Positions 1 to 47,556 of a stretch of DNA of 64,000 nt are shown piece by piece. The stretch is from Loxodes magnus (lineage: Eukaryota > Ciliophora > Karyorelictea > Loxodida > Loxodidae), in the NCBI GenBank assembly GCA_946699065.1, contig CAMPDV010000024.1, positions 1,054,001-1,118,000 of the forward strand, written 5' to 3'. The notes beneath the pieces are model-generated. The model was given only the letters and a program-made list of their open reading frames with translations. It made no database searches and was not told where the DNA came from. The translations under genes were made by a program, and so were the position numbers. Each line of letters starts with the position of its first letter. The first letter of the stretch is position 1.

Positions 1-165
1 CTACAAAGCAAAATACACTGCTTTTTCAAAGTTTCCTCTTCTAATATACTTCTACAGTGCACTTTTAAGTAAAGCAACACTCATTCCATTATGTGACTCA
101 TTAGAATTAGGTCCTTTAAACCAAGATCTGTTCTAATTTTTGAGTTTCAAGTAACACTAATCCAT
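1..165 (-). CDS. N-terminal fragment of an unrecognised conserved-looking protein
   Basis: The first 55 codons of a minus-strand gene run off the left edge. The start ATG is at 163-165, followed by an open frame with UAA/UAG read as Gln. The visible part carries SALQKYIRRGNFEKAVYFAL. That string resembles the ALQK-IRRG segment seen in the C-terminal region of MgsA/WRNIP1-type ATPases and in some stand-alone proteins, but the match is from memory and too short to name the gene. The rest lies outside the window. Its upstream neighbour is a long spacer. Confidence 0.5.
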
Positions 166-1924
166 ATAAACTGTTTGCACAGTAGTTTATAAAAGTGAAT
201 ATGCCAGAATTGAATGTGGTCTATCTTTTACTGTTATATCCAATTTAGTTTACTTATTAATTGTACCTTTATTTATTAATTATAATTCTTCCTTATTATA
301 GTTAACTTATTTGATATTAATCTTTATATATATTTTTAGGTATCTTCACATTATTCATTTATTTATTTCTGATAACCAAAATCAAGGGAAAATAGAATTA
401 GAAAAGCGAACTAGTTTTAAAGGTGTAATATAGAGTGCTAAAAGTTGCTAAAAATTTAATTCCTAAACTTAAAAAGTTGAAATAAAAAAATATTTTAAGG
501 TTTTTTCACTTAAATGTGTAAAGAAAGGTATTTTAAGCTCTAATTTATTTAGCTAAGAACTTACCTTTAACTTTATTATTGTAGATTAAACTGAAGAAAG
601 AGATAAATCAATGGATTTGCACTTTTAGTAGGTAGTCAAATATTTATTATAATTAATAAAAGCTAAACCCCATCAAATAAATTGTAAATATAATAAATAA
701 AAAGCATTTGTATATATTTTGAGTGCTTTTACAAAAAAACTTTATTAGCATAGTACTAAAGCTAGTAAAAATACACATAAGCAATATTAAATCAAAAAAA
801 TATAAATAAAATATCACTTATATAAACTAATATTATCCTTTATATTAGAAATATATAATTAGAAACAAAACTGGATAATATAATATGATATTCTTTAATA
901 TAATAAATGGATTATCAAATTTATATTATTAAATTTTAGGTTTATTTGAGATATTAATACATTTGAAGTTTTAATTGAAAAAAGAAAATTTGAAATTAAT
1001 TTTAATTTTAAAATAGAAAAATTACAATTTATTTCTTAAGAAGATAATACAACATCTACATTTCACAAAAAGTATATTGCTAAAATCACAGATAAAATAA
1101 AGGAAATAAGATACTCATTATTAAAGTTTTTATTTTTAATGAAAAAATCTAAAATTTTATATTTACTCCATATTAAAACATTAATGCATAAATTATAAAT
1201 AAATTAATTAAATAGTAAACTAATTCTTATATTTTTTAATTTTTAAGCATTATATCTTATATAAATATAATAAGTTCCTATGTAAATTAGTTTATAGAAC
1301 TTTTTCACTTCATTTACTTTATAATATCTAATTTTGATTTAATTTAATAAACTAAACATAATAACTTTAATATTTTTTATCTTATATAATTTTTAGAAAG
1401 TAAACATTGCTAAATATCCTTATATTTTTATTTAAAATAGATTTAACTATTCTTTTATAAATATATTAAATAAGTTTTCTAAGTATTAAGAAGTTATTAT
1501 TTTAAATTCATAAGTTAAAACATGTAATTAACTATTTTTATTTATTTATTTGATTAATTTTAGAAAGTACTGAAATGATACTGTTAATTTAATTATTAGA
1601 TAAGATTTTCCTTATTAAAAAGTTACTATTCAGATATTTTCTAAAATGTAAGTAAAATCTTAAATAAATTATTTTCTATTATTAGTAAATTTAATATGAT
1701 TAACCTTAATATTTCAACTTTTTTATTTTTTTTCTATGAAGATGTAGAAAATTTTTAAAGATTTTTAAATTAAAAGCTTTGAAAAATTAATTAAAGCTAA
1801 GTACCAGAATATTAATTAAAATTTGATGATTTTTAATTAAAAATAACTGTTTGAATAAATTTGTAATTATGTTAATAATTTTAAATTAGATTTAAATTTA
1901 ATATTTAAAATCTGACAGCTCATT
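166..1924. other. AT-rich spacer, no gene seen
   Basis: About 1.76 kb of very AT-rich DNA with many A and T runs. I see no frame with protein-like composition, no RNA gene and no repeat array. It separates the start of the partial gene from the 3' end of the B-box/Kelch gene. Confidence 0.6.
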
Positions 1925-4348
1925 TCATAATGAACATTTCTCCCATTTTCTGTTTTGAGATTATTTAGTTTCATAATAGTATAATACTTCTTGTTCAGTT
2001 GATTATGAACCATAAATTCATATTCTTTCACATTCATATATCCCATTATATCAAAATGCAAAATTCATTTTAGGAAATGGTTATCCGTTCTCTTAGATAG
2101 TTTTTCAATCAAATGTTAATGTCGATTTTAAATTCGTTTCACTGTCAAATATATAAACTTAATCTCTTTGCTATGCATAAACAGCGCATATTCTATAAGC
2201 TTCTCTCGGTAATTTAATTACTTCAGATTACTATCATTTATTTATTATTATATCATAAAAACATATATAATCTTTAACACCAGCTTAATTTTACAAATCG
2301 AAATATCCTCCAAATGTGAATATAAAATCATAAGCATAGCATACTCCATGTTTATATCCTTTATGCAGATGTTGAGCTATTTCTATATTTTTATTATTTT
2401 CTGTATTATATACTTCACAATTATTAATAGAATTTTAACTCTTCTTAAAACCCCCAATAATATAAATTAGGTTTTTATTATCAAAAGATAATGATGTATA
2501 ATCTCTTGGGAATATTAAATTTTATTTATCGGCTATTTAATTTTAATCTATTGTTATAATATAATTCTAAAGACTATCTTAATTTTCTCCTAATCCACCT
2601 ACCAAAACTAATTTACTGTTAGATATTTAAAAAGTAGAAGTTCTGTTGTTATCGATCTATATCAAATTTTGAATAGAATAATTTGTTTATGTTATAGGCT
2701 ATTAAATATTTGTTGATTATAAAATATTAGAGTTGAATTTAATTCTAAAATAATTAACTAAAGGATGTAAATTCTTATTATTAGCTCTAATCTTTATTAT
2801 ATCCAAATCACTTTCTTTTGTCATTTTTTAATTTAAATCGCATCATTCGGTAAATTATTTTTTCTGAATATATAATTAAAATTATCCTTTTTATTCATTC
2901 TATAAAATAGAAATATTTTCTGTTTAAATTTAAATTTTTTACGTTTTTTAAAATAATTAATCTAATCAATCTGTTTAAAGTTTTGTTTGCTACATCTAAT
3001 CTTTAATTAACTATTATAAACTTGAATTTTGTTATTCAATTAATTACAGTTTAGAATTAAAATTTTGAGAAGATATTTGTTCTCTTTTTATTTACTCTAT
3101 CTGTTCTTAAACTTTTAATTTTAAATTATGATTTTCTTATTATTATTGAATTAATAATTAAGATTTAGCTGCTATTTCTTATTTGTAGTTTATAATCTAA
3201 TCTGAAATAACTTAGATTTAAGAACTAAGATTTTAGTTTTTTTATTATAATTCATTTCTTTCTACCTCAATTTTAGCTTTTATATAGTTTAAATTTGAGG
3301 TATCTTTTTCCAACTATAATATTTTTTATTTATTATTATTTATCTCTTACTCTTATTATTTAACTATCTCATTTTTAATTTATTCTTAAGATATATAATT
3401 TTGTGTAGAAATCTACAATTTTTTAATCTATTTTTGTTGCTCTTCATTTATAACTTTTTAACTCTATTTATCTTACTCTATCTGTTCAACTCTATTTTGA
3501 TAATCCCTTATCTATAAATTTAGAATTTTTAGATCTTAAGTTTTTTCTTCAAGAACTTTATTCAAATTTTTTTCTCTTAATTCTAATTAATAATTTTACG
3601 TTAAAATATTCTCTTTATATTTCTTAAAGAGTTAATTTTCATATAAAGCCTCAAGTACAATAGATTGAAAATCTTCATAAAATTAATGCTAGTTTTTACT
3701 GATCTAATCTTCATATTCTACATTTTAAATTTTATTTTCTAAGTTATCTATCTATTTTCTCTTGAAATCACACTAATCTAAAGTTGATTCTTCTAGTTTA
3801 CAAATTTAATCTACTATTATTTACTAGTTATGATTTTTCATAAGTCTTGACGCTATTTCTTGTTATGAACATTCTAATTAATGTAAATATTTGTTTAGTT
3901 AGCTTTAAAGGATCTGAGTAATTTCTTAAATAAGTTTGTCTTTCACTTCCACAATATCATTTCTAATTTTTAATTTGATTTTACTTATAGTTACTTAAGT
4001 ATTATTAATGAATTAATTCTTAGCATTAAATATCTATCTTTTCTTGATTTATAATAATTTAGTGTTTAGTTCTTATTACTAAGATTTAAGTTTCTCCTGC
4101 ACTAAAATAACTTCATGATTGTGAGAAGAACCCAAGCACGCATTACATACTGTTTCATTATCCTTAGCACAAATAAATAATAGTGGAAGTTGGTGATCTT
4201 TGCATAAATTCTAAAAATTGCATTAAACTTATAGAAGCTCAGAAACCGATTCGAACTATTTGAAATTATGTAAAGCACAAAACAAGAATTTAGCTCTTCT
4301 AAACATAGAATTAAGGCATTTTTCGCAAGAAATACAACCACATCCCAT
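1925..4348 (-). CDS. B-box zinc finger / coiled-coil / Kelch-repeat protein (TRIM-like layout)
   Basis: 807 aa with no intron. A Cys-rich N-terminus (C3, C5, C8, C11, C24) is followed by a B-box-type zinc site (C49-x2-H52, C60-x2-D63, C68-x2-C71, H76-x-H78). A long Gln/Lys/Glu-rich coiled coil covers about residues 85-500. The C-terminal part has Kelch-type repeats with the G-G pair and the downstream Trp (LVLVGGLGE, YIIGGFKKS, FTFGGYFD then YDIIINKW). The Kelch Trp at 2234-2236 is encoded by UGA, and the ORF continues in good sequence beyond it, so this UGA is sense. I place the stop at the UGA of 1925-1927, after KWEKCSL; reading it as Trp would add only spacer-like residues. Proteins of this layout act as scaffolds or ubiquitin-ligase adaptors, but no clear RING is present, so a ligase role is only a guess. 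Confidence 0.87.
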
Positions 4349-6656
4349 TGTTATAGGTTTTCTGCTTGATTAATTATAGCTCTTCAAGCAACCTTCACAT
4401 ATCTAACCTTACATGTTTGAAAATAGTAAAAAATGTAAGATTTTTAAGTTAAAAAATAAAATATTAAACTTATTCCTTTTTATTCCTATTAATGGATTAT
4501 TTGAATAAAATCAATTTAAAGCTATTATAAAATATTATTAATTACAACATTTTTAATGGAACTTTATTAAATCTGAAAAAGTAAATTATCTGTAAGTTAA
4601 AATAGAGATTTAAATAAAAAGATGCGATTATATTAGATATTTTAAGAGCTGTTTACTATGCAAATAAAATATTAAAAATAAAGATATAAATTTTAAAAAT
4701 ATTTTAGTATGGAGAAGTGTTGTAATTTTAAATGATTTAAATAAAAATATCTAAGTAAAAGTAAATTGCAACCTCAATTAAACGATATAGATTATTAATA
4801 AAATAAAATATTTTTATCTATTCTATATTTTATTCATATTAGCTAGAAAGTTGAGTGAAATGTTGCTATTTCTAGTGCTAAATTATAAAATATTTTAAAA
4901 TTTCTTTTAATGTTTAACCTTTTATTAAGTTTATTTTTGCAATTTTGTTCTTACAGATTCTAAATTTGTTGAAGGACTACTTTAATCTTTATAAACTTTC
5001 TAGTTGAAGGGAATTATTTCTTATTTAGTTTAAGAAAAATGTAATTAATCCATTTGAAATTTATGAAGAATTTCAATTAAAAAAACTTTCAAAACTTAAC
5101 TAGATGCAAAATATTTTTATTTAAGTTATTAATTTCTAAATAAATTGTATATCTAAAGAGTATAATACCAACAGTCATTCTCGTATTGGTATAAGTTCTG
5201 AATTTTCATTTTTAATTTTGATGCATTATTCTAACTTAATTTTTAAAAATTTTCTAATTTTTTTAATGTAACTTTCTTAGCACTCAATTTTCTCTAAGAT
5301 TTATGATTGCTATGGTTTTAGGGTTTTAGCTATCCTAGAGTTTGATTTTAAATTAAATTTTTTTCCTAGAATGATATCTTTATTTCACTCATAGTAAAAT
5401 TAAAAAAATTATTTTATAAAAGAAATTATCTGAGTTCTTCAAAAAAAAGATACTAAAATTTATAATTGCAAGGCCAAGTAATTTTTTTAAATAAAAGCTA
5501 CTAGAAATAATAATAATTTCAATTTTCATGTTATGTAACTTAATTTTGTGTTTATACTGTTGTTCATTTATTTTTTATGAAGATCAGAGTTCAATGATGC
5601 ACTGCTCTATTTTTTCTTCAAAGATTTACCTTTTCTCTTATCTTTGAATGTGTTTCTAAGATTGGAAGATAAATAGTAGATTTTAATGAATTAAATGCTA
5701 GTATATAAGAATTAAAATTAGCTATAATAGAAGTTCCTTATATAAAAGAACTATATTCTTATCTAAATTTAAGCTAATATTCTATTTATATCTTAATTGA
5801 GATTTATATATCATACTGTTCTTTTTCAAAATCAAGAAAACAACTAAATCAACTATAAATAAATAGCGTAGTTATATAAGCTATATTTAAGTCAAGATAC
5901 TTTAAATCCACATAAGAGAAAGTAGCTAAATGCTTTAGAAAACAGGTATAATAGATATTAAGTGAGTTAAACCTATCAAAATTAAAAATTTTAAGTACTT
6001 CAATGAGACATATATTGATATGTGCTAAAACAGTGCCAACCTATAGATAAGAAAAAGTAATTTTAAAGAGATAAATAATAAAATATTTAAGTTTTTCTTA
6101 TAGCTAAGAACTGATACTTGCTAAACTTTGCCAAAGAAGCTAAATTAGATAAAAAATACCTTTACATTTTAAATCTTAGTATCTAATCTAATTGCCAAGC
6201 AAGTTCTAATTTTAAATCCTTGCTACATTATTAAAAACCTTTCTCAGGCTTGCTTATGAATATATAATAAAGCTGAGGATTCATATAAATGTATTTTTCG
6301 TCAGTATAGATAAAAGAGGAATTTAAATAAGCTTTGAAATTTTTTATAAGGGAACTAGAAAAATATAAAGTAAACTATGCTTTTGTCAAAAGTAAAGTAC
6401 TCACAAAAAACAAAAATTATAAGCTAAGTAATAGTAAAAAATACTGAATATATTTGCTTTACTAAATAAGAATGAGATATATATAAGAATAACTGATAGT
6501 AGTTAAAACATAAATGAGGCTTTTTGTTTCTGAATTTGCTAACAAAGCTTTAATAGAGATAAAGTATTCCTAAATACTAGAAATAAAGATGGTATAGAGC
6601 TAGAGATAATGTAGTGATTTATGATAGTTAGAATTAAAAATTATTGTATTATTTCA
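4349..6656. other. AT-rich spacer with one weak ORF
   Basis: 2.3 kb between the B-box/Kelch start and the 3' end of the SM-synthase-like gene. A small inverted repeat (ATACCAA / TTGGTAT, 14-nt loop) lies at 5165-5192. A plus-strand frame at 5577-6619 stays open with two internal UGAs but has spacer-like composition and no recognisable domain, so it is not called as a gene. Nothing else is visible. Confidence 0.5.
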
Positions 6657-16095: not shown

Positions 16096-17301
16096 ATGGA
16101 CTAAGAATTGATTAATGCTTCTGAGTCTGAAAGAATATCAAATTAAAGGTTTCAATAAATAGAAGAATTTTCAGAGGAAATTCCAAAATAAAAAAAGACT
16201 TCTACCTCGAAAAATAGTTAGTCAGTTCTAACAAACAATGAAATGCTGGCATACTTTCCTAAATTTAACAAAAGGTTGATAGTACGAAACTTAATTATAT
16301 TTATATCCTTTTCATTAGTAGTTGATATGTTTGTATTGTTTATGAACATATTCAAGTGAAACTTTGACTCTGTTAATTTAATAATTACACAGTAGTGCGT
16401 TAGGCTAATTTTTAAATTTATTGGTATCAATGCTATTTATAGAAGAAGCAAATCTAGGCTGCTTTTGTTTGCTATTCTAAATCTTTCTCTAGGATTTTAC
16501 GAATAATTTACTCACTTTACTGAAATTTTGTAGCCAAGTATGCATTATTTGATTGATCTTTAAAAGGATATAGATAAAGATATAGCTTTTGATGACGCAT
16601 AATAAGAGTATTAGGATCTACATAACGCTAATGGGACTTTTTAACAGATGATTAGAACTTTATAGTCTTTTATGGATCTGACAGTATGTGCTCTAGCTTA
16701 TACACTAAGAGATGAATTTATTGTTCAAAACATAAAAGGACATTAGTCAGTATTATCGATTTTGCAATTTAACTCAGTAGCATAAGAATTGTATGAAAGT
16801 GATTAATGCTAAAAATGCTTAATTATCACAAACAATTATACTAAAATAGGTAATATCATCACATGCTATAACTGTGCTAATTATAACATTTAATTTGTTA
16901 ACACTGAAAGTATGAATTCTATCCAAAGATAGTCTATTGATGATGTTTCCAGTAATTCCTCTAGAAAAAAAATTAAATCTTTGCGATGTTCAACATTATC
17001 TGGAAAAAATGCTTCTCAAGAAATCGGTTCTTCTAGAGAGCTCGATAAATCAGTAAAACAGAAAAGTTTCTTTGAAGTTCTAGATGAAGATGAAGACCTT
17101 TAATTATTTATTTTTTCCAAAAAAATTGAAATATTATTGATTTGTTCCATCAAAGCAAATCAATCTAAAAGCATTGTATACTTTCGATTAGCATACTTTA
17201 TAATATACAGTAATATAACAAATATCTATGTCTCTATACTTCAAAGCATAATCTTTTAGGAAAATACCTCTATTACAAGATTATTAAATAATTAATTATG
17301 A
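16096..17301 (+). CDS. Unrecognised multi-pass membrane protein
   Basis: 401 aa to the first UGA in a non-coding-looking context (17299-17301). The frame stays open further, to 17973 (625 aa), if UGAs at 17299 and at about 17710 are Trp. The N-terminal ~60 residues are polar and acidic, then two membrane segments (NLIIFISFSLVVDMFVLFMN and a hydrophobic stretch near RLLLFAILNLSLGF), a soluble part, and two CxxC pairs (CQKC ... CYNC) that could hold zinc. A Ser-rich stretch ending in the acidic EVLDEDEDL follows. An internal UGA (FKWNFD) is Trp. No known family recognised; a sensor or channel-like accessory protein is possible but unproven. The part after EDEDL is AT-rich and may be an unselected tail. 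Confidence 0.6.
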
Positions 17302-18164: not shown

Positions 18165-21100
18165 TCACAAGATGTCAAAATTACTTTTGCAACTTTCAAA
18201 TAATTTATAAAAATAATCTGACTAATACTTTTATCTTCCTTCTTAAACTGAAGAAATTTCACACAAAACTGTTATTTGAGCTTGTTTATAATTTTCAGTA
18301 AATAACATTAATTTTATAGACTAAACTAATGAACTATTTGTATGGAGTTAATTATCTAAATACAATTTTACTATTAGTAAAGATAAAGTTTACTTAACTT
18401 TTTATACGTTGATTAATAGTAAAAATTTAGTAGAAAATGCTAGCAGTTTAAGCTAATAGCAGTTGATTTTGGAAAAAAGTGTTAAAAATGATAGAAATTA
18501 TGTAGATGAAGTTTCTGGAGTTTTATTACTGTCTTTCTCATTAATTTCAGTTTTTACAAATTCTATTTTTGGATTTTCAAACTTCACTTCAAATGTTTTT
18601 TACTTTTAGATTCCTTTTTCAATTATAGTTTCTAGTTCATCTTCACTATCAAGTTCATATTACTAAAATTAAATCTCTTCTTCGTTAGTTTTTTCTCCTA
18701 CTGAAATATTCTGTGCGTTCCAATCCTCAGATGCTTGTTATTGGATTGCAAGTTAATCCTTATTTTTCTTTATAGATAAATATTCCTCTTTAGATTGATT
18801 TTATTACTTAATTTTTTATTTTTACTAGTTTAGCATTTCGTTTTATTGTAGTTGTAAATCAACACTTGTTTTCTTTATCAGCTATAACTGGATATCGCTA
18901 AATCCGCTTTGCTTTTTTTAAGTCTTATCTTTGCTATCCTTACCTAGCTCTGAATTATTTATATTTGACTTTAATTTTTTTTTCTGTCCCTCTATTTTAG
19001 TAAACTTAGGTGTCTAAATTCCTGAAGTTTAATCTGTCTTTGTACCTGAGATTTTACCAGTACTCTTCTTAATTATACTTAATTAGGTCTGATCCAATGT
19101 GCTTTTACCAGCATTTATGGAATCCTCTTTGATTACTTCTTAACTTTAATTATCACTATTTTCAAGCAAATATGACGGTGCAGATTCTATAAGACTGTCT
19201 GTACTTACATTCATTTCGCTTGAATATTGTTCATCAAATTATTTCTACTCCATCAAATTTACAGCCTCACCAACATCATTAAGCAGCTTCTTATTTAACT
19301 AATCTACATGGAAATTTAATTATTCGGTTTGATCTACTGCCAATTTGACGTTTTACAAAAATTCTTCTTTTTGCTCATTTGAAAATTTGAATTTTTCTTC
19401 AGTAGGATCAATAAATATTAGTTCAGAAAACTTACACCTTTTTAATAATTTTGAAGGGCTTATTTTTCTTTCTTTTTTATTTCCAGAAGAGGAATCTTCA
19501 CCGTCTTAAGACGAGTTTGTAAAAGAATTATTAAAAAGCCCATATTTATTATTATGTTCGTTCACTTTGTTCAACTTTTTACCAAGTCAATCAAGTCTTC
19601 TTTCCATGCTTATTTTCCTAATTCAAATTTTTGCTTCTGGGTATTAATCTAATAAACTGAGAAAAACATCCTTTTGAATTGTCAATAGGTTTAATCTTTC
19701 TTTGTCTGCCTTAAAATCAAAGCAGGGGACTATATCTAGTAAAATGTAATACTCTCCTATAAAAGATTTGGGAGGCAACATTAAAATCTTTAACTCTTTG
19801 TAAGTCAAGATAACATTGCCACTTGTAATAAGGTACATTTCAGTCACCGGCCTGAAAGCTTATAAAACTGTATCATTAGGTAAGTATTGGTGTGGGATTA
19901 GAGAACAGATGAAGTCATACTGAAAGTTTTATTTGCACTTGCCGAGTAAAAAATCGAAAAATTCAATTAACTCAGAAAATAAAAACTAGAGAACTTTCTT
20001 TCTTAGTTGATAAGGTAGCTTGTCAAGTATTCCATTTTCAAATAAAAATTCACTTTCATGAGTGTAGATATATTGATAAAGCTCCTGTATTTATCTATGT
20101 AAACTCGGAGATAATTTCTTGGTGCTAATAGCCTGATCAAGCCTTATAAGTCACAAATCCAAATTATCTTGTTTAACTGTCTCTTTCTATTTTTTTTATT
20201 GGTAGTCCATAATCATTTTAGTTACGTTACCTATAAGAAAGGCAAAAGTTGCTATTCCTATAAATTCCACAAGTAAGGTAAAAGTTATTTCTCCCATATA
20301 TTTTGGTTGGATGTTTCCGTATCCCACACTTGAAAAAGTGGTAATAACTCAGAAAATGCACCCAATGTATTTTTCCTTGTTAGAAATGGTACCAACATAA
20401 TCAATACGCTCATATCAAGGTTCACTATACATATCAGATATTAAATTTCAGAAGCATGCAAAAAAGTGTGTAATTATGACTATCGAAAACAAAAATTTTC
20501 CCATTCTGACAAACTACTAAATTTAATGGAAATCGACACTTCCATATTACATCAACAGATACATTAATCCTTTTTTGCCTCTAAAAAGCCTAGTAAGTCG
20601 AAATAACTTGGAAATTCTCATTACTCTTAACAATCTTCCCAGTTTAGTCAACTTCAAAGATGTATCAAAAAACTAGAAAGGAAAAGTAGAGATTAAATCA
20701 ATGAAAAATCATGATTTTAGATATTTTTTGGATATCATTAAAGAATCGTCAATAATATTAACATCCTCTATATAAGCACATCTAAATCTTAATACTATGT
20801 CTAATGCAAAAAAGCAATCAAAGATAAATTCTATTCATTTCAAAGTTGTATCTGGCTCTATTTTAAAACCTATCCTAAAAGGAACTACCAAACAAAAATA
20901 AAGAATTAGCATAGCAATTCAAAAATCAAAGACAGATTTTCATCTATCTTATGGATAAATTATTAATTTCTTCCTCTATGCTCATAATACTTTATTTTCA
21001 ACTAACTTTTTATCATCATTTGCATAATAAGAAACTATCTACCTCCCTGTCTCAAAAGTACCCATTGATTATTTACTATATTATAATAAAATCTTACAAA

Positions 21101-22227: not shown

Positions 22228-25200
22228 TCAAATTTGTGTTACATAAGCTCTTAGTACTACTTCAAAAATTAATGGATCAGTCTATCCAGGTGGAACATAA
22301 CCTCCCTACAGCTTACCTTCAATAACTTGCTCAACCCACTATCCTACTCCTTTTAAAGCTTCCATTCCTTCTATTATAGAATCAATAGGAGGGGCATTGA
22401 ATGTGAAAGAAATGTTGGATACACTTCCTGCATTAAGGTTTTCCTTTAGCTTATCGATTGAGAAATAGTTAGTTTCTTATTTCGGCATAATAAACTCAAC
22501 AGTTCCAGGTTTTGATAATTTTGGATCATTAAGTTAGCAACTTCCAACCTGAAGTTTACGTATTTTCATTTATTCATTTTCGTATTCAGTCTCTCCTTTA
22601 TTTTTTCTAAATATTAAGATTATTTTTTAACGACCTTCTACAATTTAATCCATAAAATCAAGAGGTTCTTAAACTTGCATATTCCAATTTGTAGGTCTTT
22701 TGAATGGAGCATCAATTTTAACAAAAAGTTATCTGCTCCAACAATTTCCTGCTATATAGAGATCTTGAGGAGTAACTTAGTTAGGAACATAAATTAAGAC
22801 ATGAGCGAAGAAATGTTGACTTTGATGATCAGGAGCAAATCTAACAGTTAGATCTAGTTCTTTATTAGCTGCCATGTTAGCTTCCTATGGAATGAAAGAA
22901 AACACATTTTATCCTGATTTATTTGTGCGACCATGATTCTTCTTTTAAATCTAGAACTCAAGAGCAAATGAAGATACATTTTAAAGTTGCAAAGATTTCT
23001 CATTTTAATCCCCTGTTAAAACATGTCCCATTCAGATTTCTTTCTCACCATTTACCTTTAGCTCAGGTCGAACACCTTTACCCTTCAGTTTAACACTAAC
23101 CATCGATTTTTCACTTTTTAGTACTAATCTTTCTTCAAATATTTATTGGCTTGGAGGAAGAAATTCAACTACTACTGGATGCGTAGCTCCAGGTTCTATT
23201 GTTCTTAATGCATTTAAAATACTAAAACCACAGTAAGGAGGTAAAGGAACTACACCTAGAGAAGCTGGTTCAAATCCTATATTACGTATGAGCAGTTCAT
23301 GAATTTTTCTTTAAGCAACTGCAATTTCTCCAAAATCATGCTCTATTTCTTCAGCCACTAGCATTTTTTCAACAACAGTCGTTCTTATCTCTAGAAAAGT
23401 ATTAACTGTTTCTCCTGGAGTCCAAGTTTTAAATCCCATAGTTTACACTTAAGCGATAAAAATAGGAATTTGATAAGTGGCATGTTCACTTTCTATTTCT
23501 TTTCTCCTTTCAAGCCAAAACATTGGTTTTTATTCTTGTTCTTATAATTTCTTTTCCTCTTCTTATTTTTTCCTAAGTTCTTCCTGTTTTCTTTTTAGTT
23601 CTTCTTCTTACTATTTTTAAAGCTCTATCTACTTCTACAGTTCAGCCTATTCTTTTGCAGTTAATTTCTTTCCTGGTTATGGAGCTGATAGTTAAGGAGT
23701 TTGATTTGACTACTAAGGAGTTTATTCTTATTATATTTCTTGCTTTGATTCTTCTTAGGGGAAGTTTCTAATTCTTTTCCTAAATTTGCTTTCGAATTTT
23801 ATTAAATGTTATACTATTTAGTTCGTTTGCAAGTTCTTTATCACTACTGGATTAATAGTCAGTCCTGATTCTTCAAAAGAAGGGGAAATTATTTCATAGG
23901 CTAAAGTTTTTTTACTTTAGTTTTGAACTCTAAACATTACTTCTTAACTTTCACCTTCAGGCAGAGAAGGAAATTCAAATTTGGTATAGGAGATGTTGAT
24001 GGGACATAAAATCACATGAGCTTTGTAATTGTAAAATATTTCCCTTGCTGATATGTTTCCTGTCTTTACCTTTATCGCTATTTAACTTTATTCCTTAGGT
24101 AATTCTGTACCTGGCTTTTAAGGAGCAGGTCGATAAACAGCAAACATTTCTAATTCTTCATCTGGTAATAGAGTTCCAAAGCCGTCATCAGGCTCAATTT
24201 TTATAGTTTCTGGCAGCCTTACAAAGGCAAATTCTTAGGGTAATTTGCAGTTATTTTTCATAGTGAATCTTAATTTAGAAGCAGAGTGTAGGTATACTTA
24301 CTAGAAATCAAGCATAGGAGGTTCAAATGTAATATTGTTAATGCTCAAAGTAAACTTGATAGTGATTCGTACAGGTTCCTCTTAATTTGCTCCGAATACC
24401 TTTATAGGTACTTGCAAAGTATCTTCTTACTCATTTAAATATTTATCTAGAATTTAAGGGGTTGTCTTAGAAGGCCTTAGTTTACACCAAATCTCGAATT
24501 TATCATAGCCTTATATATACCCAAGTGTTGGATTAAACTCTATATGACCCTTAGCTTCTTTAGGAGCGTATAATTAAATTTTCATTGGATGTGTTGATCT
24601 GTTATGAAGGACTATTTTATCTCTGTAAGTGTGCTCGAAGATGCAGATATTAAAGTCATAAATCTACTTTTCCACATAAATAGGAACATCCATGCATTCA
24701 CCTTTAATAGTGAATGGTATATTAATTTGATCTTCATTTTCAAACACAAGCAAAAATTTCTCTTCATAGCAGTCAATTATAGTTGGACTAAACTTAAATG
24801 ACATTGTGATTGAGTTATACCCTTCAATAAAGTTAGCGTTTGGCATTTTTAGTTACTTCAAGAATTGCTCTAGTTTAGTTAGGTCTTCTTAGTTCTGAGG
24901 AACATCATTGGCTTCCATTGTAGTGGTTATACTTTTGATCTCACTGATAGACTACTCAGAGTTGAAATTTGGTAAAATATTTCCAAACTCATCTCTAATA
25001 GAAAATTTAGAACCAAGAGCTCCATCGTTTGTAATTTTCATTCTAGAAACACCTGATTCTCCCATTATAACTTACTTAAAATCTATTATTTATGGCTCTA
25101 CTTTAATGATTGTTTACTTTGGAAGGCAGATTATAGGAATTTCAAAAGGTCCTGTTTTTGATTCAAAAGGAAGAACACTATTAATAGGAGTGTTCTGCTT

Positions 25201-25590
25201 TGGAGTAAAATGCACCCACACGACACCTGTAAGACCAGCAGATAATTCTCCAGGTGGATCATACTGAATTTCAAAGAAATCCTTAATAGAAGGGTCAAGA
25301 TCCTTTTCTCTGAAATAATATTTATTAAAAGTGAAACTAACGTTCGTTAGAACTATTTTCTCTGAATACCTTTTATTTACATTAAAATCCTTGAAAACTA
25401 TTTTTTCAGGTTTCGATATAAAAGATTATCCTACAAACTTCTTTCCTCAGCAAATTTAATCTTTATATCTGTTATTTTTATGGCGTTCATGTGCTTTTTT
25501 CATAATATCTTATTCATGCTTTGTTAACTCTCTCGGACCTTTATTTTATTCATTCTCACTTTCATTAGTTTCTAATTTTTCTTCAGACAT
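22228..25590 (-). CDS. CFAP74: Axonemal ASH/MSP-repeat protein, CFAP74-like
   Basis: 1120 aa in one uninterrupted frame. It is built from repeated immunoglobulin-like ASH/MSP/HYDIN domains, shown by recurring patterns such as KIVLTNVSFTFNKYYF, KIVLHNRSTHPMKI, ELLIRNIGFEPASLGV and KSLQLQNVSSFALEF, with PPG turns. A charged coiled stretch rich in K/E/Q lies near residues 580-660. Such proteins sit in the central-pair apparatus of motile cilia. The domain order (ASH repeats, central K/E/Q helix, more ASH repeats, C-terminal LQGGYVPPG) fits CFAP74 of the C1d projection as I remember it; CFAP47 or HYDIN relatives are alternatives. Start ATG 25588-25590; stop UGA 22228-22230 after VVLRAYVTQI. Confidence 0.75.
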
Positions 25591-36475: not shown

Positions 36476-37840
36476 ATGAATAAATAACCAAATTTACGTA
36501 AAGTAGGGAGGTATGTTTTAGAAAAATAAATTGGAGAGGGTTAATTTGGAACTATTTGAGAAGGTTTTAAAGATGTGGAAGATCCTGATGAGCGAGATTA
36601 GAGACTAGCTATTAAAAAGATACCTATAAAAGGGGAGTAAACTTCTTAGTAAATAGATAGAGAAATTAAAATAATGATAAGCATTACACATATGAACATA
36701 GTGTTCCTTAAAGACGTTGTCAAAACTAAAAACAATATATACTTAGTGATGGAAATGCTTAGTGGTGGAAATTTGAAAAATTATATTATGAGAAATGGAC
36801 CGCTGTCGGCAGAATTATGCTAATTTTGAACTAGAAATATAATAGATGGCTTATTCGAACTTAATAAAAAAGATATTGTGCATAGAGACTTAAAACCTGA
36901 AAATATTCTAATTAGTAATCCTGAAAATGGAATTTGTAAAATAACGGATTTCGGCTTATCTAATTTCTTTGGCTCAGGTTTAAATAAAACACACGTAGGA
37001 ACTCCATTATATACTGCTCCTGAGATTAATCTTTAATAGTAGTATAATAAAACAGTTGATTTATGAAGTCTTGGATGCATTGTATTCGAAATGATTACAG
37101 GCTAATAAGCTTTTTATGCAGAGACTCATATGCAGTTATACTAAATATAGAGCTATGGATTTAATCACCTGAATTTTCCTTAAGATATTAACATTCCATA
37201 AGAATGCATTGAGTTACTCTAGAAAGTTTTGTAGTTTAATCCTTAACAACGTCCATCACTTGAAGAGCTTTATTATTTACCCTTCATAAAGAATGCCCCA
37301 AAATCTTATAGTGAAATAGAGCAAATTAAAAAAATTTAAGCAGTTCCAGCAAACTCTGAATAGAACAATTTTATCTAGATTTCATAACTTCAGCAAGAAA
37401 TTTAGAAAAGCCTTGAAGTTGCTAAAATAATCTCTGATGCTAATAATTAAAATTATATATCATAAGGCAATTAAAACGCTTAGCAGTAGCCCTATTAGAA
37501 TATAATCCTTCCATTAGACTCTAATATTCCTTTGTATCTTTAGATATAATAAAATTTGAATACTATGTAGTGCTTGAGTCAGTAAATTGTAGGAATAAAC
37601 ATGCAAGATCTTAATAATTGAATAAATTTCCAGAATAACTTTGTGGTGTCCCAAATTAGCTAGCTTGCCTTTATTAATTAGCTCAATCAAAGTACTTCGT
37701 AAATCACATTCAACTAGCAAGAGGAGTTGCAAATTAAGTAGATCATGATGAAATAGTACAACATTAACTTAAGTGACTAAGCGTTTTAAGCAGCTAGAAA
37801 CTTGAAATAGGAATTTGGAAAAGGAAATAAGAAAAGCTGA
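36476..37840 (+). CDS. Ser/Thr protein kinase (ULK/CAMK-like)
   Basis: 454 aa. The kinase domain spans residues ~10-275. Gly loop: IGEGQFGTIWEG (Trp = UGA). Lys in LAIKKIPI. Gate: [16 protein letters not shown]. Catalytic loop: [17 protein letters not shown], then GTPLYTAPE, then VDLWSLGC, whose invariant Trp is encoded by UGA at 37064-37066. All catalytic residues are present, so it is an active kinase by sequence. The loop and G-G-L signature resemble ULK/Atg1 and CAMK families common in ciliates. The tail (~275-454) is Gln/Asn-rich and possibly coiled. The start [17 protein letters not shown] places the Gly loop at the usual distance. Stop UGA 37838-37840. Confidence 0.94.
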
Positions 37841-38933
37841 GAACATGAAATATGATATTTAGATAATTTTTAATATCAAAACAACTTAAATCTAATATAT
37901 ACGCCTCTATACCTCTCTTAGCTAAGCTTAATTCCATCTTAGCTTTCTTAAGTAATTTCATAAGTTTGCATATATTGAAGTTAAATACTATATAAAAACT
38001 TATTATATACTAATAACCAAATTTGATAGCTGTTCTATATTCCATTAATAGGAATAGAAGCTAGAAATAAATTAAGTAGGTATAAGTTTTTATTAACTGG
38101 AAGTAATGAATTAATATAAATAGCAGGATATGGCTAAGGTGGTTCTTATAGTAAAGAGTATAATTCAGTTAAATTAATAATGCTAAGTACATTATTATTA
38201 GTTATTCCTATTACTTAGTTTTACTATATCTTAAATACAAATATTTAAGAGATAATACAGAATTAATATCTAATAAAAATAGTAATCCTTATATCTAAGC
38301 ATACTCAGAAAGCTTAATATAGCGATAATTATAAATAGGCTTTCCTTAACTTCAAGCAAATATATCCAAAAGACATTAGTTTGTGTAATAGTAGAAATAA
38401 ACTGCAGTTCACATAATGGCTATATAATTTAGCATAAGCAGTTATAATGAGATATTTAGAACTTAGCAAAACTAGATAAAGTTATCTGCTTAATAGATAA
38501 AAGGTAGCTGTTAAGTATATTCTTAAATTATATTTAGAAACATTATTATTAAGAGATTTGAAAAGGATATGTGATATAGGGAATATAGGGGATATGCATT
38601 ACTTTTTATTGATATTGTGAAGATAGTACTCCAAAGTGTATTTCTAGCTTAGATATTCAAGCTGGTAATTTCTTAAATTAGAGTAGCTTTGATTTCTTAC
38701 AATGCTAGTACAGTTATTTACAACACGATCTAAATAAAAAGAGCAAAATTACTTCATACAGTTAACGAGACTTAATAGTTTTATTCACTAGTAGGATTGC
38801 TTTAACTCTAGTTATAGTAAACTGAAGAAATAAAGAAAGATACTTATTAAAATACTATAAGCTCAGTAATAGCGATACTAGAAATTTGGTATATCAATAT
38901 TATAAAGGAAGTAAAATAACAATTTAATTAGAA
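37841..38933. other. Spacer, nothing seen
   Basis: 1.09 kb AT-rich. No gene; contains one AATGGCTATATAA copy near 38413 similar to the spacer hairpin arms. Confidence 0.55.
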
Positions 38934-40814
38934 ATGTCTTAAGATTTAAAGCTCTATTAGACTAACCAGAATGATAAGACGCTTGATACCTTTGTCTTCA
39001 ATAATTCAATTGATAATCCTTTAGAATAGGAAAACACTAATATGAACATGTAAAACTATAAATAGCATTTAGAAGTAAAAAAATAAAGCTTTAGCGGAGA
39101 AAAAATAATTGATTCCGCTTAATCAACAAAGATCTCTTTAAAGAAATAAGAGTAAGAAATAAATTTAGTTCCTAAGATAAATAAGAAAAAGAGTGTTTTA
39201 TTTATTCCTGATAACTATTAAAAAGGAGATAACACTAATCTAATAAATTAAATTGTAGAGAAAAGTAATATAATAGCTCAGCAGGATAAAGAGGAAGGTT
39301 TAAGAAATTATTTATTAGCTTAGAAAATCTATATTACAGATGAAAAAAAACTAACCAGATAAAAATTAAAAATCATTGATAGTATTGTAGCAGTACTTGC
39401 TCTTGCATCAATGATTATAGCATACTGTGAAAATAATAAATTTATAAAATAAAAGAAATTTATATTTCCAAAACTTAAAGTAGACATAGAAGAAACTACA
39501 GAGGGAGATGAAGACGAAAAAATATCTTAGTTAAAATGGGTTTTTGAAAATGATGATACTGTGTTCATACTAAGATCTATTAATGTAATAATAACAGCTA
39601 ACATACTGATTCTAATCATAAAACGATATTTTTTATTTCTGAAGCTCTTAATTCTTAAAAGAAAGCTTCCAGATTTTTCCACACTTTGGTCTTCAAAATT
39701 GATAATATGGCTCATAATTGAACTATTAATTTGTGTAATATGCACACCTCCTAACTTTGATGCAAAAATAGAAGGTTATCAACTTGGAAAGAGATATGTA
39801 TATGCATGGGATTCAATTATTTTAGCATGAATGCTTCTAAGAGTATATTTGATACTGCGGTTATATCCCCACTACTCAAGATGATTAAGTTTTAAAGCTG
39901 AAGAAAGTAGTAAAAAGTATAAAATAGAAGTAGGGGTTATGTTTGCTATCAAAGCTGATCTTAATAGGAGAAGCTATTTAGTAATTGCTGTCTTTCTTGC
40001 TACATCTATTTTATTACTTGGAGTTGCGTTTAAAAGCTTTGAAATGACATGCGAGAATCAGCCTTTAGATTTCAGATACCTATCTAATACTATGTGGGTT
40101 ATTATTATTACCATGGCTACTGTAGGATATGGTGATGGATATCCTAGTACACATCTAGGAAGAGTAGTTGCTGCTTTAGGTTTCATAGTTGGAATCTTAT
40201 TTATTTCATTATTCATTGTGTCCCTCAATTAGACAAGCGATTTTACAAAAGAAGAGCAAAAGGCTTTTTACGTACTTAAGCATATAAGAGCTCATAGTAA
40301 TGCAAAAAACAAAGCAAGCAACGTCATAAAAACTGTTATAAGACTTAAAATGGCGAAGGAGAAAAGAAAAAAAGCAGACAAAGCAATCAACCAATTTATA
40401 TGGTTCACTAAACTTAGGGCTGCTATTTCAGAATTTAAAAGCTAAATTTTTTTTGCAAAGTCACATGATGTTCCAGTTGATGAAACTTTGCGTCAGATAC
40501 AGTAAAAATTAGAAGAGGATTTATTAGAAATTAGAGAATGTATGAAAGATTTACCTACTGTATCAACTCGTTGCTATACGCTTAAAGAGCGTTAAAATGG
40601 GATTATAAATCGTTTTGATTTAATCCTTAAATCTCAAAACAAAGCCATTGAAATATTATATGATCTTCATACACTCAGTGAAGATGGAACATGTGCAGAT
40701 GAGAATTTCAACAGCAAAAGTGATAGTTAGTCTTCATAGAGCCAAAGCTACTTAAGTTCAGATATTACTGAAGAAGATGAAGAAAACGAAGAAGACAGAA
40801 GTAATGATGATTGA
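38934..40814 (+). CDS. SK-type Ca2+-activated K+ channel
   Basis: 626 aa. The polar N-terminus (~150 aa) is followed by six membrane segments: S1 KIIDSIVAVLALASMIIAY, S2 SINVIITANILILIIKRYF, S3 LIIWLIIELLICVICTPP, S4 DSIILAWMLLRVYLILRL, with few charges as in SK channels and Trp299 encoded by UGA at 39828-39830. Then S5, the pore WVIIITMATVGYGDGYPS (filter GYGD) and S6 VVAALGFIVGILFISLFIVS. Right after S6 a basic helical region (residues ~430-480) matches the position of the calmodulin-binding domain of SK channels. The C-terminus is acidic and Ser-rich. In ciliates Ca2+-dependent K+ channels shape swimming responses. Stop UGA 40812-40814. Confidence 0.9.
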
Positions 40815-45129: not shown

Positions 45130-47556
45130 TCAAAGTATTTCAGATATCTAAATTGTACTTGCTACTTTAAAGTCTATGGTATTTAATATAGTGAAGTATG
45201 TAAAAATAGAGTTTACTTTAAGCAGTTAAGAATGAGATTGTAAGCTTAGGCTTTTAATTTAATTAGTGTGTTAATTATATTGCTCGTTTAAAACTTTATC
45301 TCCAATTTTGAGTTCATGCAAAGGCATTGCTATTCCATGGAATCTTTCATTCTATGATATTATGACGAAATCAATGTCAGCGTAGTACACCTAATTGTCT
45401 TTAAGTTGTTCAGTGCATGGAAATAGATAAAGAATGTTATCTTTTTCAAAAATTACTTTGCAGTCAAATTTTACTTGATCTATCTTTTAGAAGAACGATT
45501 TATGAATTAATCCCTTTTTATTGCTACTTGATAGAACTCCAAAAAATTCTTCTTCATTATCTAAATTGCTGATATCTTCTATAGTCACTTTGACTATTTC
45601 ATTAAACTGTGCTATCTTCTTAATATGAGCATTTAGTTACTTTCCTAGAATGAATAACTCTTCACTTTTATATTTTTACCAATTCAGAATTCTTACGTAG
45701 TTTCTCTTGTTTATCTGCTTATTGAATTTACACTTGATTGTCATTCCTGGCTTTATATTGGTGGTGAATTTAGATGAAGCTTTTAAATCATTTCTGAATA
45801 AAATGGTAGTTCACTCTCCTTAAACCTTTGATACAATTCCAAATACTTCTTCCAAGACTTGAAGCTTCTCTACAGAATCAGGTACTTTATCTTATTAGAT
45901 TTGTTATAAGATTAAAGGCTTAGCTATGTATTTCTGGTTATACACTATAATTTCTAACTGAGAATTTGCTTCAATTGGATTTACATTTCATAGATCACTA
46001 CAATGTTCAAGAGGGATTCCAACTGTTTTATCGTTATAGAGCATTTAAACATACTTCTTATCATAGTTCATAACTTAAACTGAGAATAATTCATTTTCAT
46101 TCCTATCTTAATATTCAGTTAGACTTAGGTTATACTTATTAATGGATAAAACATACACATTCAAAATATCTCCTACTTTGTGTATATTCTACTTTGGTAA
46201 AATTCCATATATGTTTCCAAAGAATTCTAGTATGTAATCATCCTGATTTATTTTTATAACTATTCCTGTCAACTAAGTACCATTCGTTATTTATTCCCTA
46301 CTATAAATTTAAGCGGAAAACAATTTCTGTCTTAAAGTGACTTTTAGCTGCTTATTAATGGGATTGAAATACATCACTCTGCATTTCACTCTTTCTTTCA
46401 TTTTGAAATTTTTGTCAAAATGCCATTGGGGAACTTTACAACTTACATGTTCTGTCTTTTCACCGAAATAAATCACCTATTTCTTGTCTTCACTTTAAGT
46501 TTAGTCATCACCGTTTTCCTTAATCTTTCCTTTAAGTGAATCCCCAACTTTTACTTTGCTTCAGTCTATTTTCTTTGGTATATGTTGCTTGACATTGAGA
46601 ATATAAAGCTGATCAAACTAGTTAAAATCATTTGTCATAAGATTACTAATAAAATTTCCTTCAGAGAGCTATTAATCTATTAAACTCTTCTTCAATAGAC
46701 CATACTAACTTTCTTGCTTTCCATTTTGCTCACTTTCTCCATTTTCTTGCTAATTAATCTAGCAAAAATAAGATCCACCTTATATCCTTAAAACCTTAGC
46801 TGATTACTTTAAATGAGCTGGAAAGTCCTAGCATATGGTTTTATTAAGTTTAAGGATTTTTTCTTTTGTGCTTAACAGAATTTGTCTATTAGTCAAATCT
46901 ACCTAAATAACCCTGCAAACGTCTATATTCTTATCAAACGTGAAATTCTCCGTTTACTCTATCATTATTTATCCTGGGAAGTGCTTTAAAATTTGTACGG
47001 TTTCATAGTTTCCGTGTGTTGACTTTACTTTTCCTGTTGTTAGCATTCCTGGTTTTAGAAATTGAATGTTGCTGATGGATTTAATAACCTGCTACTTTAA
47101 GTTCTGCTTTAATTACTTTAATTGAATGCTTTTCTTTTTTATCTTCTTTACGACAAATGTTTTGACACATCCTGCTTCTAACTTTTTCGTATAGCAACTG
47201 ACTCCAGGTATTTCGACATCTACCTATACTTTCTTTCCAACGACTTCTTGAACATATCCATTTAGACACATACCAACTTAGATATCTTGCTTGAGAAGAC
47301 CAGCGTTTACTATTTTAGGCTTTAAACTACATTAAATCTATCCATCCGATTTGATTATAACGCAATTCAGAAATGACCCCTTTTAGTAGAACTCAGTTAA
47401 GTCTGAATTTGCTGATTGATCGATACTAACAAATCCTTTTTTATTTTGAGTGAAGCAAACGACAAAGTATTTTTGTCGGACATCTACTACTTAGCCTAAA
47501 TGTAAAGTGCCTACATCAAAGTTAGCTTTTATGAATGTAGACTTTAACTAAGCCAT
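45130..47556 (-). CDS. RRP5: Tandem S1-domain protein, Rrp5/PDCD11-like (short form)
   Basis: 808 aa. A row of S1 RNA-binding domains is seen: VGTLHLGQVVDVRQKYFVV with KGFVSIDQ, VGMCLNGYVQEVVGKK, LKPGMLTTGKVKSTHGNYE, VGDSLKGKIKEN, ITNGTQLTGIVIKINQDD, and KLQVLEEVFGIVSKVQGEWT. Serial divergent S1 repeats of this kind are the hallmark of Rrp5/PDCD11, which helps process pre-rRNA for both ribosomal subunits in the nucleolus. The usual protein is far longer (about 1700-1870 aa), with later S1 repeats and a C-terminal TPR/HAT array, neither of which is seen here. A split gene or a different S1 protein is possible. The last ~50 residues before the UGA (45130-45132) are spacer-like. Confidence 0.72.

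What the first reader, a model, noticed from the sequence alone, without database searches (positions are those of the whole stretch)
37064..37066. UGA is both Trp and stop in the same genes; UAA/UAG are never stops
Seen: all 25 genes with a visible 3' end terminate at UGA, while TAA/TAG occur throughout their frames. UGA also encodes the invariant kinase Trp (DLWSLG, 37064-37066), a Kelch Trp (2234-2236), the SK-channel S4 Trp (39828-39830) and TOG-domain Trps. Known: karyorelict ciliates use such a code (table 27). Inference: stop choice must depend on position near the transcript end.
Basis: partly seen in the sequence, partly recalled or inferred. Interest (0 to 1): 0.7.

Follow-up and report, generated by a model that had tools for sequence, protein, structure and literature searches.

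The report
Dual-meaning UGA codon in Loxodes ciliate
This DNA comes from a ciliate, very probably Loxodes magnus, in which the codon UGA means tryptophan inside genes and stop at their ends; this code is already published, and the only fresh detail is that UAA may still act as a stop in a few genes.

Summary
In detail: TGA at 37064-37066 is in frame in a protein-kinase gene at the DLWSLG position, and TAA/TAG run through the frame. The window lies in a 705,730,643-base assembly, which fits the published 706 Mbp macronuclear assembly of Loxodes magnus. That paper already states this code, NCBI table 27.

My own test: in 30 Ras-family domains of the same genome, 20 of 22 usable in-frame TGAs fall in Trp columns, and the DTAGQE Gln column holds 22 TAA, 5 TAG, 2 CAA, 1 ATG. 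The genome has tRNA-Trp(CCA) genes with a 4-bp anticodon stem (52 places). One pattern search found no tRNA-Trp(UCA). eRF1 differs from human at sites 55, 58, 60, 70 and 125.

"UAA/UAG are never stops" is too strong: two Ras-family genes appear to end at UAA, and UAA, unlike UAG, is depleted in the last 20 codons. The SK-channel and TOG examples could not be verified.

Verdict: an already-known code, correctly recognised; the UAA stops are candidates only.

The parts
36515..37855 (+). Protein-kinase gene (5' end not defined here) with four in-frame sense TGAs (36557, 36827, 37064, 37619) and two possible stop TGAs (37838-37840, 37853-37855)
   Evidence: In-frame TGAs listed; Pkinase E=1.3e-63; translation
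37064..37066 (+). Sense TGA at the DLWSLG Trp position of the kinase
   Evidence: PDB kinase has Trp in this column; residue scan Trp 216.6, Tyr 217.0 bits on Pkinase, Trp best on PK_Tyr_Ser-Thr
18498..21065 (-). HCN-like channel gene with 11 in-frame TGAs and 1 TGG; modelled end is TAA
   Evidence: gene model; TGA positions; Ion_trans E=2.1e-25; Trp best of 20 residues for TGA (92.9 v next 85.5 bits)
20709..20711 (-). Sense TGA aligned with Trp of HCN4 (KYLKSWFVVDF) when read as Cys
1925..2824 (-). Kelch gene with four internal TGAs and a TGA end
2234..2236 (-). Sense TGA in a Kelch repeat (FYDIIINK-TGA)
   Evidence: Trp best of five residues tried
39828..39830 (+). In-frame TGA next to an SK-channel-like domain; Trp reading not tested
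22228..25590 (-). CFAP74-like gene: 50 TAA, 14 TAG, 2 internal TGA, 7 TGG, TGA end
16096..17103 (+). Gene model whose best end is TAA, with no in-frame TGA in the next 45 codons shown; weak candidate UAA stop
   Evidence: no Pfam match at E 0.01

Best explanation
The window is nuclear DNA of the karyorelict ciliate Loxodes (very probably L. magnus), which uses the ambiguous code of NCBI table 27. SHOWN HERE: inside genes UAA and UAG stand at Gln positions and UGA at Trp positions, and UGA is the usual codon at gene ends. SHOWN AS GENES, ROLE INFERRED: a tRNA-Trp(CCA) whose anticodon stem has 4 bp instead of 5 (A27.C43 mismatch) probably reads UGA as a near-cognate codon, and eRF1 is altered at decoding sites. 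INFERRED FROM PUBLISHED WORK: far from the mRNA 3' end the tRNA wins over eRF1 (sense); close to the poly(A) tail eRF1 wins (stop), perhaps with help from poly(A)-binding protein. Genes avoid UGA and also UAA in their last ~20 codons, which suggests that UAA is still recognised by eRF1 near the end and is an occasional stop.
For: TGA in Trp columns 20 of 22 and TAA/TAG in the DTAGQE Gln column 27 of 30. Trp best of 20 residues in the channel domain. Same codon meanings in the published L. magnus work, assembly size match. 24 of 30 Ras-family genes have a terminal Cys motif followed by TGA. TGA 0 of 980 codons just before stops, pooled p=0.004; TAA:TAG 16:34 there v 538:256 elsewhere, p=7e-7. 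4-bp-stem tRNA-Trp(CCA), 52 places; TCA form 0 places. eRF1 substitutions.
Against: The kinase alone does not settle it: Tyr scores 0.4 bit above Trp on Pkinase and Lys 1.9 bits above Gln for TAA/TAG. Two of 22 Ras TGAs and one of two kinase-set TGAs lie outside Trp columns. The Ras set alone does not show TGA depletion (p=0.11), and window ends are chosen by my gene finder. No tRNA-Gln(UUA/CUA) was identified. Bases 27-31 of the C148 tRNA-Trp array were not read. No RNA or protein data were used.
Confidence: 0.85

Rival explanations
1. Ordinary ciliate code (table 6: UAR=Gln, UGA only stop); genes with in-frame UGA are pseudogenes or mis-framed.
For: Table 6 is common in ciliates (recalled), and TGA ends most modelled genes.
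Against: TGA sits in Trp columns in 20 of 22 usable cases in otherwise intact Ras domains, and 18 of 25 window models have internal TGA. Published L. magnus transcripts show coding UGA.
Confidence: 0.02
2. UGA is decoded as Trp by a cognate tRNA-Trp(UCA), nuclear or imported from the mitochondrion, rather than by the 4-bp-stem CCA tRNA.
For: Cognate suppressor tRNAs are the most common solution in other codes (passage), and ciliate mitochondria encode tRNA-Trp(UCA) (passage).
Against: The TCA form of the tRNA-Trp pattern has 0 exact places. That is one strict pattern, so a divergent UCA tRNA could be missed. The TCA-anticodon tRNAs seen by ARAGORN in the loci scanned are tRNA-Sec.
Confidence: 0.1
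3. UGA is changed in the RNA to UGG or UGI (A-to-I editing) or spliced out as part of tiny introns.
For: A-to-I editing of UGA would give a Trp-like codon (general knowledge); introns here are very short (mean 19.3 bp).
Against: UGA codons were counted in assembled transcripts of L. magnus. Splicing out would delete conserved residues of the kinase and Ras domains. RNA reads were not examined here.
Confidence: 0.03
4. The UAA ends in L079 and L075 are not stops: UAA is Gln there and the proteins run on to an in-frame UGA 43 and 22 codons later, or an unseen intron changes the frame.
For: In-frame TGAs exist at those distances. The same scan gave motif+TAA/TAG hits that are clearly not ends (L055 after its own stop, L080 in another frame) and an off-frame QCC-TGA in L079 itself.
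Against: L079 aligns with its paralogue L065 right up to CNC, where L065 has TGA. L075 ends in a CaaX-like CLIF. UAA depletion before stops suggests that UAA can terminate.
Confidence: 0.4

Closest known systems
Karyorelict nuclear code, NCBI table 27: Loxodes magnus (Seah et al. 2024, PMC11441545) and Parduczia sp. (Swart et al. 2016, PMC4967479)
   Same: UAR=Gln, UGA=Trp or stop, near-end depletion of UGA and UAA, very short introns; almost certainly the same organism as the first
   Different: Nothing shown to differ. Possible UAA stops are added; I recall them being mentioned by Seah et al. 2022 (not held)
Condylostoma magnum code (table 28; Swart et al. 2016)
   Same: UAR=Gln, UGA=Trp, context-dependent termination near transcript ends (passages)
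   Different: There all three codons are regular stops; here UGA is the main one and UAA at most a minor one
Blastocrithidia code (table 31) with 4-bp-stem tRNA-Trp and eRF1 Ser67Gly (passages)
   Same: 4-bp-stem tRNA-Trp(CCA); eRF1 changed at what I take to be the same site (human 70)
   Different: UAR=Glu and UAA the only stop there; eRF1 has Gly there and Ala here
4-bp-stem tRNA-Trp(CCA) already noted in Loxodes (Swart et al., eLife RP93502, cited in PMC13092985)
   Same: Same genus and same feature (passage)
   Different: That paper is not held, so copy number and array structure could not be compared

Membership tests
NCBI table 27 (karyorelict code) | UGA encodes Trp inside genes | tested here: met
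   20 of 22 usable TGAs in Trp columns; channel scan best with Trp
NCBI table 27 (karyorelict code) | UAA and UAG encode Gln | tested here: met
   DTAGQE Gln column 22 TAA, 5 TAG, 2 CAA, 1 ATG of 30; the kinase alone is ambiguous between Lys and Gln
NCBI table 27 (karyorelict code) | UGA is the stop codon at gene ends | tested here: met
   28 of 30 Ras-family genes end at TGA (24 after a Cys motif, CNLL in L070, Tyr in L061, L064, L071); in L052 and L053 a TAG stands just before it; 21 of 25 window models
   L079 and L075 appear to end at TAA; 4 of 25 window models end at TAA
NCBI table 27 (karyorelict code) | Stop UGA lies close to the poly(A) tail, sense UGA far from it | not testable with these tools
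   No RNA data; published mean 3'-UTR 53 bp
UGA decoding by 4-bp-stem tRNA-Trp(CCA) | tRNA-Trp(CCA) with mismatch at 27-43 | tested here: met
   A27.C43 in all copies read on C67 and neighbours; 52 exact places
UGA decoding by 4-bp-stem tRNA-Trp(CCA) | No tRNA-Trp(UCA) | tested here: inconclusive
   0 places for one strict pattern
UGA decoding by 4-bp-stem tRNA-Trp(CCA) | The tRNA reads UGA in a functional assay | not testable with these tools
   needs a reporter
Table 6 (ciliate code) | UGA is only a stop | tested here: not met

The most novel reading that the evidence does not exclude
In Loxodes UAA is a second ambiguous codon: Gln in the body of genes, but kept as a working stop near transcript ends in a minority of genes. 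The cell would then run two dual-meaning codons with one altered eRF1 type (E55A, T58R, S60Q, S70A, Y125F) and an unpinned tRNA-Trp, with selenocysteine as a third meaning of UGA.
Probability: 0.5. Interest if true: 0.45.

Novelty: already known. Interest (0 to 1): 0.25.

Why it matters
A codon that means both an amino acid and stop shows that ribosomes can use position in the mRNA to choose. What remains open is which parts of the machinery make the choice. This genome has the unpinned tRNA-Trp, no UCA tRNA found by one pattern, an eRF1 altered at decoding sites, and depletion of UAA as well as UGA before stops; these are concrete parts to test. Sense UGA is about half of all Trp codons in the window models (63 TGA v 62 TGG), so this is routine decoding and not rare readthrough.

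Tried and rejected
Tandem backup stops: both eRF1 copies have another in-frame TGA three codons after the first, but 24 Ras-family genes show no excess (2 TGA in the 480 codons after the stop). Rejected.

Suppressor tRNA-Gln(UUA/CUA): searches (10 hits v 8 control; ARAGORN finds no tRNA in those 10 loci; 3 v 4) are at chance. One search gave 414 v 15, but most of the strings shown (100 places listed, 86 with letters) fit tRNA-Lys(UUU) and tRNA-Arg(UCU) shifted by one base; that is my reading. Inconclusive.

Fully paired 5-bp tRNA-Trp stem: the G27 form has 0 places. The one place of the CCA-loop pattern without C43 (C12) is AT-rich, and ARAGORN finds no tRNA there.

First gene-finder version gave introns for free and was discarded; one search is the corrected one. 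It still ends the kinase gene wrongly at 37172, so the counts carry that error.

PDB search with the SK-channel segment matched designed proteins and a viral glycoprotein only, weakly. TOG: sub-threshold. Rfam and ARAGORN on the window found nothing.

Rows left out of counts: one of 23 Ras TGAs in a gappy column., six of 30 Ras genes without Cys-motif+TGA: L061, L064, L071 (Tyr-TGA), L070 (CNLL-TGA), L075 and L079 (TAA). In L052 and L053 (counted among the 24) a TAG stands between CCK and TGA, so UAG as the stop is not excluded there. The motif scan also gave false hits in other frames or past the stop (L055, L068, L072, L076, L079, L080). Depletion before stops is measured against the conserved domain, a different part of the gene.

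Full report
WHAT IS THERE. TGA at 37064-37066 is in frame in a protein-kinase gene, in D-L-TGA-S-L-G. The frame 36515-37930 matches Pkinase (E=1.3e-63) under table 27. With TGA read as Cys, a neutral choice, the best PDB kinase has Trp in that column. Two further in-frame TGAs lie in the domain (36557, 36827) and one follows it (37619); the gene ends at 37838-37840 or 37853-37855.

WHERE IT COMES FROM. The window is G000:C24:1054001-1118000 of a 705,730,643-base, 7,843-contig assembly. Seah et al. 2024 (PMC11441545; abstract, sections 6 and 9 and find-passages seen) report a 706 Mbp macronuclear assembly of Loxodes magnus. They state that its only stop codon, UGA, also encodes Trp if far enough upstream of the poly-A tail. 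That the window is L. magnus is my inference from size and code.

CODON MEANING, TESTED INDEPENDENTLY. The best 30 of 150 Ras-family matches (L052-L081) were aligned with TGA, TAA and TAG as unknowns. Of 23 TGAs, 22 were usable and 20 lay in Trp-majority columns; background Trp is 0.8%. Those two columns hold 18 TGG/9 TGA and 15 TGG/11 TGA. The column that I read as the Gln of DTAGQE holds 22 TAA, 5 TAG, 2 CAA and 1 ATG. In 8 kinase domains only two TGAs were usable, one in a Trp and one in a Glu column.

RESIDUE SCANS IN THE WINDOW. With TGA read as each of 20 residues, the Ion_trans domain of the channel at 18498-21065 scores best with Trp (92.9 bits; next Tyr 85.5). The kinase gives Tyr 217.0 and Trp 216.6 on Pkinase, and Trp best (154.4) on PK_Tyr_Ser-Thr. 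For TAA/TAG, ten residues on the kinase: Lys 218.5 and Gln 216.6 on Pkinase, Gln best on PK_Tyr_Ser-Thr. Kelch: Trp best of five residues on PF24681. In the channel, TGA 20709-20711 read as Cys aligns with a Trp of HCN4. So the kinase alone settles neither codon; the Ras columns and the channel carry the weight.

THE WINDOW'S GENES. A simple gene finder, trained on the Ras and kinase domains and two eRF1 genes and allowing GT-AG introns of 16-29 bases, gives 25 models and 10,486 codons: 63 internal TGA, 62 TGG, 412 TAA, 208 TAG. Eighteen of 25 models have an internal TGA; 21 end at TGA and 4 at TAA. The kinase model is wrongly truncated, so these counts are approximate. Pfam matches above cut-off: Kelch, Pkinase, Ion_trans (HCN-like), CFAP74 domains, TMEM43, tetraspanin, ATG27, peptidase M28, PAP2_C, short-chain dehydrogenase, SK_channel, ACBP, nucleoside transporter. 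Other models had no match above cut-off.

ENDS OF GENES. In 24 of 30 Ras-family genes a Cys prenylation-type motif is followed by TGA. L070 ends CNLL-TGA and three end Tyr-TGA. Two do not fit 'UAA is never a stop'. L079 ends SCNC-TAA where its paralogue L065 ends NCNC-TGA; L075 ends KCEKCLIF-TAA. The next in-frame TGAs lie 43 and 22 codons on, so longer proteins are not excluded, and the motif scan also gave chance hits. In L052 and L053 a TAG stands just before the TGA.

NEAR-END DEPLETION. In the last 20 codons TGA is absent: 0 of 480 Ras codons (p=0.11 alone), 0 of 500 window codons (p=0.046), pooled p=0.004. TAA:TAG falls from 132:61 to 10:21 in the Ras set (p=2e-4) and to 6:13 in the window (p=0.002). 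Seah 2024 reports the same, depletion of UGA and UAA but not UAG, in transcripts. The window part depends on ends chosen by my gene finder. After the stop there is no excess of in-frame TGA (2 of 480).

MACHINERY: tRNA-Trp. A tRNA-Trp-like pattern with one mismatch allowed has 474 places v 51 for its reversed control. Of the 100 listed, 48 lie on contig C67, 51 on C148 and 1 on C12. The copies read, in loci on C67, have a 4-bp anticodon stem with A27.C43 (407 readings, many of the same copies because the loci overlap). The exact A27-to-C43 string has 52 places: 48 on C67, 3 on C519, 1 on C5655. The C148 copies therefore differ somewhere in bases 27-31. A G27 form with the rest intact has 0 places, so no fully paired 5-bp stem was found, but the C148 letters were not read. 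The TCA form has 0 exact places. PMC13092985 (passages) says that the 4-bp form was already identified in Loxodes by Swart et al. (eLife RP93502, not held), so this is a confirmation.

MACHINERY: tRNA-Sec and eRF1. Three loci pass the tRNA-Sec cut-off and ARAGORN names them tRNA-SeC(tca). UGA may thus have a third meaning, as Swart 2016 described for Condylostoma and Parduczia (passages); no selenoprotein was tested. eRF1 has two closely similar copies, L050 and L051; L049 looks like Dom34/pelota (my reading). Against human eRF1 (1dt9) L051 keeps NIKS and has E55A, T58R, S60Q, S70A, Y125F. A preprint passage (PMC12440015) says that yeast Y122F, which I take as human Y125F, raised readthrough in earlier studies though not in that screen, and that E55D, not E55A, aids readthrough-type incorporation. 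PMC12153298 (passages) reports Ser67Gly in Blastocrithidia, which I take to be the same site as human 70. I did not search whether the Loxodes eRF1 changes are in print.

HOW IT PROBABLY WORKS. In gene bodies the unpinned tRNA-Trp wins over a weakened eRF1 at UGA. Close to the poly(A) tail the balance turns, as Swart 2016 proposed from ribosome profiling in Condylostoma (passages). The genes are shown here; the competition and the distance rule are inferred.

NOVELTY. The code is known and was correctly recognised. What may add something are the UAA-stop candidates anchored by paralogues. I recall that Seah et al. 2022 mention a small minority of UAA stops in karyorelicts; that paper is not held, and one search with the term 'stop-UAA' found it in none of the 8 papers listed of 11.

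Noticed in passing
G000:C67:482318-491201 and G000:C148:155464-169180: Tandem arrays of tRNA-Trp(CCA) genes: 48 copies about 187 bases apart on C67; 51 listed on C148, mostly 241 bases apart, whose anticodon stem differs in bases 27-31 from the C67 copies.
   Followed up: partly
G000:C103, C78, C158 and other contigs: Other tRNA-like strings, in my reading tRNA-Lys(UUU) and tRNA-Arg(UCU), also occur in hundreds of copies, some in arrays, so high tRNA copy number is not special to Trp.
   Followed up: no
L039, L040, L041: Three closely similar tRNA-Sec(TCA) genes, so selenocysteine is a likely third meaning of UGA.
   Followed up: partly
L050, L051 (G000:C196): Two closely similar eRF1 genes about 35 kb apart, without introns in the reading frame, both ending DEDFL-TGA with another in-frame TGA three codons on.
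   Followed up: yes
18498-21065 versus 22228-25590: Trp codon choice differs strongly between neighbouring genes: 11 TGA/1 TGG in the channel model, 2 TGA/7 TGG in the CFAP74 model.
   Followed up: no
1-6000: GC is only 18-21%, and apart from the Kelch gene no gene model lies there.
   Followed up: no
45271-47547: Long minus-strand frame with only a very weak integrase-core match (rve_3, E=0.26); possibly a mobile-element remnant.
   Followed up: no
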